Source of the DNA: Candidatus Tectomicrobia bacterium RIFCSPLOWO2_12_FULL_69_37
GTDB lineage: Bacteria > UBA8248
Direction: 5' to 3'
Length of the DNA: 36,536 bases
NCBI GenBank assembly: GCA_001790955.1
Contig: MGDP01000126.1
Coordinates: 1 to 36,536 of the forward strand
The position numbers and the translations under genes are program-made. Every line of letters begins with the position of its first letter. Positions within the stretch are counted from its first letter, which is position 1. The notes under the pieces are model-generated. The model was given only the letters and a program-made list of their open reading frames with translations. It searched no databases and was not told where the DNA came from. Below are positions 34,563 through 36,536 of this stretch, in pieces.

Positions 34563-34568
34563 TATAGT
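34563..34568 (+). promoter_or_regulatory. Candidate -10 box TATAGT upstream of the UGSC selenoprotein gene
   Basis: TATAGT 50 nt before the ATG; no clear -35. Confidence 0.35.
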
Positions 34569-34617
34569 GGGGGCGCATGGCATTCTTCGGCGCCGCGGGA
34601 CGAGGAGGAGAAGAGGG

Positions 34618-36288
34618 ATGGACCCCAAGACTGCCGTTCGGGACGGGAAAGGCCTGGCCACCCTGCGGGTGCTCAACCCGGTCGCCGCGCGCAAGTTCCG
34701 GCCCGTTGCGCCGGCCAAGCGGCACGCCGACCTCTCGGGCAAGAAGATCGGCCTCTACTGGAACTACAAGAAGCACGGCGACGTGGCGCTCCGCCGGGTG
34801 AAGGAGCTTCTCTCCGGGCGCTACGAGGGCATGCGCTTCGAGTGGTTCGAGACCGGGCCCGTGAACGAGGCGGCGGAGGAGTGGCTCGAGAGCGTGCGCC
34901 TGAGCGGGGTGCAGGGAGTGGTGGCCGCCACCGGGGACTGAGGGTCCTGCACATCGTGGTTGGTCAGAAACCACGCGGGCATCGAGGAGCTGGGAATCCC
35001 GGTCGTCTCCATCGTGCAGGACTACTTCCTGGAGGACGCCAAGGCGAGCGGCCAGGCCTACGGGCTGGAGAGCCCGGCCCTGGCGGTGACCCCGGAGGTG
35101 TTCACCACCCTGACCGCCGAGCAGACCCGGGAGGCGGCCGAGCGGCTCATCGAGGACGTCGTCCGCGGGCTGACGAGTCCCCGGCCCGAGCCCCGGGGCG
35201 AGGTGGTCCGGAAGGTCACGCCCCACGGGCCCGAAGACGGGGTCCTCGCCTTCGGCGGGGCGGACCTGCTCGAGTGCCTCCAGAAGATGAACGACCGCTT
35301 CCTGGAGTGGGGGTGGAGCGACGGCTTCCCGCTCATCCCCCCCACCGAGGAGGCGGTCGCCGGGATGCTCAAGGGCACCCGGCGCGCGCCGGACGACACC
35401 GTGGTGGAGAGATTCGTCCCCGGCAACGCCCGGGCCACGGTCCGGGACATCGCCGTCAACGCGGTGATGGCCGGCTGCCGGCCCGGGTTCCTGCCGGTGG
35501 TGCTGGCCGCCGTCGAGGCCATGCACCATCCCGAGATCAACCTGCGGATGTGCACGGTGTCCACGGGCGCCCACGCCCCCCTCTTCGTCGTGAACGGGCC
35601 CGTCGCCGGGAAGCTGGGCGTCAACGCCGGCTCGTGCGCCCTGGGGAACGCCGGGCCGGGCGGGCTCTCCTTCCCGAACGTCGCCATCGGGCGGGCGGTG
35701 CGGCTCGCCCTGATGAACGTGGGGGGGGCCTACCCGGGCATCCTGGACCAGGACACCATCGGCTCGCCCGCCAAGTTCAGCATGGTCCTCGCCGAGAACG
35801 AGCGGGAGAGCCCCTGGGAGCCCTACCACGTGGAGAAGGGCTTCCGGGCGGAGGAGAGCACCGTCACCTGCTTCTACGGCCACTCCCTCATCGAGATCGC
35901 CGACCTCGAGAGCGAGACCGCCGAGGCCCTGATCAACACCATCTCCCTGCGGGTCGCCGGCATCGGCCAGACCATCTTCATCCCCTACTACCCGGTCATC
36001 CTGCTCTCCCCGGCCCACGCCGGGATCTTCAGCCGGGACGGCTGGACGAAGGATGACATCCGCCAGTACCTGCACCTCCACTGCGCCATCACCGCCGAGA
36101 GGTACCGGAAGTCGAAGTCCCTGGCCATGGGCCCGGCGCGGAAGTGGATCGGCGCGGCGGATTCCGACGCGATGATCCGCCTCTTCGAGCGGCCCGAGCG
36201 GATCGACGTCGTGGTCGCCGGCGGGGCCTCGGGGAAGAGCGCGGCCTACCTGGGCCTCTTCCCGAAGCCGTACCCCGTGAAGGGCTAA
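34618..36288 (+). CDS. UGSC-type selenoprotein (in-frame TGA 34939-34941 = Sec108) fused to a ~330 aa C-terminal domain of unknown function; 556 aa
   Basis: ORFs 34567..34941 and 34960..36288 share a frame; readthrough gives ...SGVQGVVAATGD-U-GSCTSWLVRNHAGIEELGIPVVSIVQDYF...; RBS GAGGAGGAGAAGAGGG; SECIS-like hairpin follows the TGA. Confidence 0.9.
34946..34979 (+). promoter_or_regulatory. SECIS-like (bacterial selenocysteine insertion) stem-loop
   Basis: CGUGGUU (34955-34961) loop GGUCAGA (34962-34968) AACCACG (34969-34975); loop begins 20 nt after the TGA; possible lower helix CCUG (34946-34949)/CGGG (34976-34979). Confidence 0.75.
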
Positions 36289-36298
36289 GGGGGAGGGG

Positions 36299-36536
36299 AT
36301 GGAAAACGATTACGCGTTCGAGATAGCCGCCTCCAGCATCCGCTTCGGTCCGGGCGCGACGCGGGAGATCGGCATGGACCTGGCCGAGATGGGCGTCAGG
36401 CGGGCGATGGTCCTGACCGACGCGGCCCTGTGCAAGCTCCCCCCCGTGGCGGCGGTGCTGGAGTCGCTCTCCGCCCGGAAGGTCGAGTACGCCCTCTTCG
36501 ACCGGGTCCGGGTCGAGCCCACGGACGCCTCGTTCC
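36299..36536 (+). CDS. Iron-containing alcohol dehydrogenase, hydroxyacid-oxoacid transhydrogenase (ADHFE1)-like; 3' truncated by window edge, absent from ORF track
   Basis: Manual translation MENDYAFEIAASSIRFGPGATREIGMDLAEMGVRRAMVLTDAALCKLPPVAAVLESLSARKVEYALFDRVRVEPTDASF; RBS GGGGGAGGGG. Confidence 0.88.
   Translation, partial: MENDYAFEIAASSIRFGPGATREIGMDLAEMGVRRAMVLTDAALCKLPPVAAVLESLSARKVEYALFDRVRVEPTDASF

What the first reader, a model, noticed from the sequence alone, without database searches (positions are those of the whole stretch)
34618..36288. Hidden selenoprotein: in-frame TGA inside a D-U-G-S-C-T motif joins two ORFs the track reports separately
Seen directly: ORF 34567..34941 ends at TGA 34939-34941, and ORF 34960..36288 lies in the same frame with no other stop between. 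Readthrough gives GVQGVVAATGD-U-GSCTSWLVRNHAGIEELGIPVVSIV, a continuous beta-strand / redox motif / helix / beta-strand pattern. The downstream ORF's 'start' is only a TTG with no ribosome-binding site, and the upstream piece alone would be a truncated 108-codon fragment. Established knowledge: a family of (seleno)proteins named for a conserved U-G-S-C motif exists (UGSC family / 'UGSC-containing protein'), where U may be Cys in homologues. The motif match next to the TGA would be unlikely for a random nonsense mutation. Standard gene callers will split this gene.
Basis: partly seen in the sequence, partly recalled or inferred. Interest (0 to 1): 0.92.

Follow-up and report, generated by a model that had tools for sequence, protein, structure and literature searches.

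The report
Two-domain selenoprotein gene split by TGA
Two apparently separate reading frames are one gene whose internal TGA "stop" encodes the rare amino acid selenocysteine; the family was already known, but this branch is too divergent for standard annotation to recognise, and its active-site domain proves related to the selenoenzymes that cut amino acids apart (glycine and D-proline reductase).

Summary
Window 34618-36288 (+) is one 556-codon gene whose in-frame TGA (34939-34941, codon 108) sits in GD-U-GSCT. Pfam UGSC (PF24696) matches at E~1e-31. Orthologues in three other genomes keep the TGA, and in the 18 genomes held from the phylum all 89 UGSC genes that reach the site have TGA there, never Cys. 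A SECIS-like hairpin starts 13 nt after the TGA; across the family its stem shows compensatory base changes. The same genome has tRNA-Sec, selA and a selD that itself carries an in-frame TGA. selB is absent from the assembly, but selA ends 230 nt from a contig end, where relatives have selB. Assembly error, pseudogene and two-gene readings are not supported. UGSC proteins, and their fusion to an uncharacterised C-terminal domain ("Unknown_1"), were described in 2008, so this is a divergent new member of a known kind, below the NCBIfam cut-off. New here: the UGSC domain is a remote homologue of the Sec-bearing part of GrdB/PrdB (hhalign 96.5%; 92% with the motif masked), predicted flavodoxin/Rossmann-like rather than thioredoxin-like. 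Best mechanism: Sec108 is a GrdB/PrdB-type nucleophile in reductive bond cleavage, with Unknown_1 as partner; the chemistry is inferred.

The parts
34603..34610 (+). Probable ribosome-binding site (AGGAGGAG)
   Evidence: Sequence read directly, 7 nt upstream of ATG 34618
34618..36288 (+). Complete selenoprotein gene, 556 aa including Sec108, stop TAA
   Evidence: full-length orthologues of the same architecture L104 (76% identity) and L105 (74%)
34669..35175 (+). UGSC domain (PF24696), residues 18-186; remote homologue of the Sec-bearing C-terminal part of GrdB
   Evidence: hhalign against GrdB; UGSC_fam model on a GrdB
34939..34941 (+). TGA codon read as selenocysteine (Sec108) in GD-U-GSCT
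   Evidence: one TGA in all 89 phylum UGSC genes that cover the site
34955..34975 (+). Putative bacterial SECIS apical hairpin: 7-bp stem CGUGGUU/AACCACG, loop GGUCAGA
   Evidence: fold; kept in 4 orthologues; 0.8% of synonymous variants keep all 7 pairs; family-wide covariation in the related hairpin
34948..34950 (+). Cys111, the C of U-G-S-C (replaced in UGSS paralogues)
35242..36285 (+). C-terminal domain, the 'Unknown_1' partner of Zhang and Gladyshev 2008 by position and conserved Cys (inferred); no Pfam or NCBIfam match
   Evidence: PMC2398784
35476..35478 (+). Cys287 of the invariant AGC in MAGC, conserved in all 51 aligned C-terminal domains
36299..36536 (+). Start of the next gene, an iron-containing alcohol dehydrogenase, 10 nt downstream, same strand, cut by the window end
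   Evidence: PF00465 E 1e-10

Best explanation
This is one gene for a 556-aa selenoprotein: a UGSC-family domain fused to an 'Unknown_1' domain. The UGA at codon 108 is decoded as selenocysteine by the SelA/SelB/SelD/tRNA-Sec system with the help of a hairpin just downstream (supported by conservation and machinery; not by protein chemistry). The UGSC domain descends from the same ancestor as the selenocysteine-bearing part of GrdB/PrdB (supported by profile comparison). Inferred: Sec108, at the N-terminus of a helix after a central beta strand, acts as the nucleophile/electron donor in a reductive cleavage of a small organic substrate, as GrdB/PrdB do, while the C-terminal domain (invariant Cys287) binds or activates the substrate or accepts the intermediate. 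In most relatives the two parts are separate neighbouring genes; here they are fused.
For: UGSC Pfam match across the TGA; TGA at this codon in orthologues L104, L105, L106 and one TGA in 89 of 89 UGSC genes covering the site in 18 genomes; covarying SECIS-like hairpin: 98.6% of cells paired, 4 of 6 pairs with changes on both sides, covariation score 0.393 against a shuffled mean of 0.161, 0/500; tRNA-Sec (75 bits), selA (551 bits), selD (330 bits, with its own in-frame TGA) in the same genome. GrdB homology: hhalign 96.5%, E 9e-10, Sec aligned on Sec; motif masked 92%, E 7e-7; shuffled or reversed controls at most 0.2%; UGSC_fam model hits a GrdB at its Sec segment, E 5e-7. Fusion partner: 25 of 31 separate UGSC loci have an Unknown_1 gene within 1.5 kb. 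Fold confident (pLDDT 89.5, pTM 0.90).
Against: selB not found in the draft genome. The window's own hairpin is not unusually stable overall (z -0.63; 61% of synonymous variants fold as stably); its support is the specific shape and conservation. hhalign E-values are for a single comparison. No substrate, partner or activity is known, and neighbours differ between genomes. UGSS paralogues lack Cys111. No Foldseek match of the full model reaches E 0.001.
Confidence: 0.75

Rival explanations
1. Same selenoprotein, but the UGSC domain is a thioredoxin-like thiol/selenol oxidoreductase (U-x-x-C dithiol-type redox), as suggested in 2008.
For: U-x-x-C motif at a helix N-terminus resembles CxxC enzymes; [quoted passage not shown] Cys111 is present in most members.
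Against: The model is an alpha/beta fold whose listed best matches are flavodoxin/Rossmann-like, with no thioredoxin in the top 50; significant profile homology to GrdB/PrdB; some paralogues are UGSS, so the second Cys is dispensable.
Confidence: 0.2
2. Nonsense mutation, decaying pseudogene or assembly error that created the TGA.
For: A single in-frame stop in a draft metagenome assembly is often an error (general knowledge).
Against: Orthologues in independent genomes have TGA at the same codon; 89/89 phylum paralogues too; the frame is otherwise intact over 556 codons and conserved.
Confidence: 0.01
3. Two separate genes: a 107-aa protein ending at the TGA and a 442-aa protein starting at TTG 34960.
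For: A mechanical ORF list reports it so.
Against: TTG has no ribosome-binding site; the UGSC domain model spans the TGA continuously; residues between TGA and TTG (GSCTSW) are conserved.
Confidence: 0.01
4. Generic stop-codon read-through or TGA reassigned to another amino acid in this organism.
For: TGA is reassigned in some bacteria (general knowledge).
Against: tRNA-Sec(UCA), selA and selD present; the in-frame TGAs seen in this lineage fall in known selenoprotein families: UGSC, SelD, GrdB, PrdB-like.
Confidence: 0.02

Closest known systems
UGSC family (seleno)protein, Pfam PF24696 / NCBIfam NF041046 (UGSC-containing protein of the GOS selenoproteome, PMC2398784)
   Same: Same domain, same U-G-S-C motif, Sec encoded by TGA with a downstream hairpin
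   Different: Divergent branch: 89-92 bits against NCBIfam cut-off 125; orthologues L104 and L105 also fall below it
UGSC/Unknown_1 fusion selenoprotein (Figure S1A of PMC2398784)
   Same: UGSC domain fused to an uncharacterised domain with a conserved Cys
   Different: The supplementary alignment could not be read here, so identity of this C-terminal domain with Unknown_1 rests on fusion partner and conserved Cys
GrdB/GrdF/GrdH and PrdB (glycine, sarcosine, betaine, D-proline reductase selenoprotein B; TIGR01918, TIGR04483, PF07355)
   Same: Strand-U-G-[ST]-C-T-x(n)-E-x2-G-[IL]-P segment, 100 aligned columns with Sec on Sec
   Different: UGSC lacks most of the N-terminal part of GrdB; no pyruvoyl partner seen; partner is Unknown_1 instead

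Membership tests
UGSC family (seleno)protein | Match to the curated family model above its cut-off | tested here: met
   Pfam PF24696 108-111 bits against 25
UGSC family (seleno)protein | Match to the NCBIfam equivalog NF041046 above 125 bits | tested here: not met
   89-92 bits, E 3e-25 to 3e-26, full-length match; so filed as a divergent member of the Pfam family, not as the NCBIfam equivalog
UGSC family (seleno)protein | U(or C)-G-S-C motif with Sec codon in frame | tested here: met
   GD-TGA-GSCT
Bacterial selenoprotein gene | SECIS hairpin shortly after the UGA, GU in the apical loop | tested here: met
   7-bp hairpin, loop GGUCAGA at +24 to +30; family covariation
Bacterial selenoprotein gene | tRNA-Sec, SelA, SelD in the genome | tested here: met
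Bacterial selenoprotein gene | SelB in the genome | tested here: inconclusive
   Absent from the draft; selA contig ends 230 nt later, in a gene that lies between selA and selB in six relatives
Bacterial selenoprotein gene | Selenium in the purified protein | not testable with these tools
   Needs 75Se or mass spectrometry
GrdB/PrdB (selenoprotein B) family | Homologous Sec-bearing segment | tested here: met
GrdB/PrdB (selenoprotein B) family | Full-length match to PF07355 or TIGR01918 | tested here: not met
   No match at E 0.001; only sub-threshold GrdF/GrdH hits at the motif, E 0.15-0.18. So related to, not a member of, GrdB
GrdB/PrdB (selenoprotein B) family | Pyruvoyl partner subunit (GrdE/PrdA) next to the gene | not tested
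   Not searched; only the cyclophilin upstream and Fe-ADH downstream were identified
Thioredoxin-like proteins | Thioredoxin fold | tested here: inconclusive
   Predicted alternating alpha/beta fold; no thioredoxin in the best 50 PDB matches, but none of those is below E 0.001
Class I fumarase (considered for the C-terminal domain) | Sequence-profile relatedness to PF05681 | tested here: not met
   Foldseek E 2e-4 but TM 0.25-0.30; hhalign 0.3%

The most novel reading that the evidence does not exclude
UGSC + Unknown_1 is an undescribed two-component (here fused) class of selenoenzyme that carries GrdB/PrdB-type selenocysteine chemistry outside the classical anaerobic amino-acid reductases, expanded to 2-8 UGSC copies per genome in this lineage (relatives labelled Tectomicrobia/Nitrospinae), each probably paired with one of up to about 20 Unknown_1 paralogues for different substrates.
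Probability: 0.4. Interest if true: 0.75.

Novelty: new member of a known kind. Interest (0 to 1): 0.5.

Why it matters
[quoted passage not shown] Linking it to GrdB/PrdB gives a concrete testable chemistry. The divergent fused branch falls below the NCBIfam threshold, so automated annotation probably truncates it. The lineage is unusually rich in selenoproteins, all UGSC copies using Sec.

Tried and rejected
Pfam and NCBIfam on the C-terminal domain alone at E up to 10: nothing. PDB sequence search of the protein and its profile: nothing significant. Foldseek of the C-terminal domain suggested class I fumarase, rejected because TM-scores are 0.25-0.30 and profile comparison gives 0.3%. Overall folding energy of the 60 nt from the TGA is not exceptional (z -0.63) and codon-aware resampling of energy gave no signal for the window; the specific-shape test did, with the reservation that a hairpin of that general type also occurs after 19 of 772 TGAs in the window. 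selB search with two models in the own genome failed; explained by the contig end. Unknown_1 against GrdB: 0.3%, used as a negative control. Pseudogene, assembly error, two-gene and general recoding readings were considered and rejected (see rivals).

Full report
OBSERVATION. The frame 34567-36288 (+) has a single internal stop, TGA 34939-34941, inside GVVAATGD-U-GSCTSWLVRNHAGIEELGIPVVSIV. The probable start is ATG 34618 with AGGAGGAG upstream, giving 556 aa. TTG 34960, the mechanical start of the second ORF, lacks a ribosome-binding site and lies inside conserved sequence. The finding is real and at the stated coordinates.

FAMILY. With TGA read as a residue, residues 18-186 match Pfam UGSC (PF24696) at 108-111 bits (cut-off 25). 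NCBIfam NF041046 'UGSC family (seleno)protein' matches over its full length, but at 89-92 bits it misses the equivalog cut-off of 125. Fused orthologues L104 and L105 also miss it, whereas the separate paralogues L034 and L036 of the same genome pass (150.6 and 134.5 bits). The window gene therefore belongs to a divergent branch that threshold-based annotation would probably not rescue (inference).

CONSERVATION OF THE TGA. Same-architecture orthologues in three other genomes (G008, G012, G007; 63-76% identity over the aligned part, the G007 copy being frame-shifted further downstream) have TGA at the same codon. More distant fused proteins from records labelled Bacillota, Deltaproteobacteria, Acidobacteria and Gammaproteobacteria also have TGA there. 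In the 18 genomes held from the phylum there are 90 UGSC matches; 89 cover the site and carry one TGA each; the remaining one is a fragment that starts after it. In every fetched locus that was read, the TGA falls at the motif position; the motif is mostly UGSC, with UGSS and UGGC variants. No Cys form was met.

SECIS. In the 42 nt from the TGA nearly all copies can form a short hairpin with GU in or next to the loop. In 24 diverse copies that share one geometry, 98.6% of cells pair, four of six pairs show changes on both sides, and the covariation score is 0.393 against a shuffled mean of 0.161 (0/500), collapsing when the partner is slid. The window's branch has a variant of seven pairs and a GGUCAGA loop, conserved in four orthologues but with only one G-U change, so covariation cannot be tested inside that branch. 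Only 0.8% of synonymous recodings keep all seven pairs and 1.5% keep any comparable hairpin; the codons there include three that are rare in this gene (ACA 5%, TTG 3%, AGA 6%). Overall folding energy is not exceptional.

MACHINERY. In the window's own draft genome (3.30 Mb, 228 contigs, 91.6% complete, 3.85% contamination): tRNA-Sec at the very edge of contig C154, 75 bits and UCA anticodon; selA 551 bits; selD 330 bits with an in-frame TGA in KAGG-U-GSKLGPEDL. selB was not found with two models. It is present over the cut-off in the same-genus genome G001 and most of the family. There the order is selA, a hydrolase-like gene, selB; in G000 the selA contig ends 230 nt after selA, 54 codons into that same intervening gene (88.9% identity to G001). 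The absence is best explained by an assembly gap (inference).

RELATION TO GrdB/PrdB. A UGSC alignment (A6) compared with a GrdB alignment mostly from the same lineage (A7, PF07355 members read through their own TGA) gives 96.5% probability, E 9e-10, 100 columns, Sec on Sec. With the motif masked in both it is still 92%, E 7e-7; five shuffled and one reversed control give at most 0.2%. UGSC against PrdB-like proteins gives 86%. Independently, NCBI's UGSC model hits a GrdB (TIGR01917, 685 bits) at its Sec segment with E 5e-7. I found no statement of this link in the papers searched: UGSC was said likely to have a Trx-like fold (PMC2398784), and the passages read in the 2026 review list it separately from GrdB and PrdB (PMC13188914). 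This is an absence in the open-licence texts I could search, not proof of novelty.

STRUCTURE AND PARTNER DOMAIN. AlphaFold2 on the full protein is confident (pLDDT 89.5, pTM 0.90): strands 43-48, 73-78, 100-104, 129-134, 155-158 alternate with helices, and Sec108 lies between strand 100-104 and helix 112-124. Listed PDB matches include periplasmic binding proteins, lumazine synthase, LarB, PurE and a flavodiiron protein, i.e. flavodoxin/Rossmann-like folds, none below E 0.001 and no thioredoxin in the best 50. The C-terminal domain (about residues 209-556) has no Pfam or NCBIfam match; it has very many relatives, mostly stand-alone, up to about 20 matches per genome, with AGC (Cys287), another Ala, one Gly and one Trp invariant over 51 sequences. 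25 of 31 separate UGSC loci have such a gene within 1.5 kb, so the fusion and the neighbourhood tell the same story: the two work together. This matches the UGSC/Unknown_1 fusion of 2008 by fusion partner and conserved Cys (PMC2398784).

MECHANISM. Supported by results: one reading frame, conserved TGA, covarying hairpin in the family, Sec machinery, homology of the active-site segment to GrdB/PrdB. Inferred: Sec108 is a selenolate nucleophile in a reductive cleavage; the neighbouring Cys helps where present but is dispensable, because UGSS paralogues, and GrdB copies with UGTST or UGTGT, exist, which argues against a plain dithiol-exchange enzyme; Unknown_1 provides substrate binding or activation, replacing the pyruvoyl subunits of Grd/Prd (the Grd/Prd chemistry itself is established knowledge, summarised in PMC13188914). 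Neighbours include an iron-containing alcohol dehydrogenase (window), an amidohydrolase, a glyoxalase-type protein, a GFO/IDH oxidoreductase and an amidase in related loci, which fits catabolism of small organic molecules but names no substrate.

VERDICT. The gene is a new, divergent member of a known selenoprotein family with a known fusion architecture; the added value is the GrdB/PrdB relationship, the Sec-only census and the annotation blind spot.

Noticed in passing
L031 (G000:C62:962-1924, - strand): selD of the same genome is itself a selenoprotein gene: in-frame TGA in KAGG-U-GSKLGPEDL.
   Followed up: yes
L034, L035, L036 (G000:C72, C51, C184): Three further UGSC genes in the same genome, each with one in-frame TGA; two sit directly beside a stand-alone Unknown_1 gene.
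   Followed up: yes
L116-L129 and L131-L135: GrdB and short PrdB-like genes of this lineage and some other genomes also run through a TGA (UGTCT, UGTST, UGTGT, UPLC, UPMC); the Pfam GRDB model PF07355 ends at the Sec codon.
   Followed up: partly
L162, L168, L169, L176-L179; L170-L174, L180, L181: UGSC paralogues with UGSS (no second Cys) or UGGC motifs.
   Followed up: partly
G000 to G017: The C-terminal domain family is strongly expanded (up to about 20 copies per genome) yet the window's copy matches nothing in Pfam-A or NCBIfam.
   Followed up: partly
L106 (G007:C417:1357-1631): The fused orthologue of G007 is frame-shifted in the C-terminal domain, probably an assembly error.
   Followed up: no
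L110:6245-6958: An arylmalonate decarboxylase/Asp-Glu racemase-family gene lies near one UGSC gene of the same genome.
   Followed up: no
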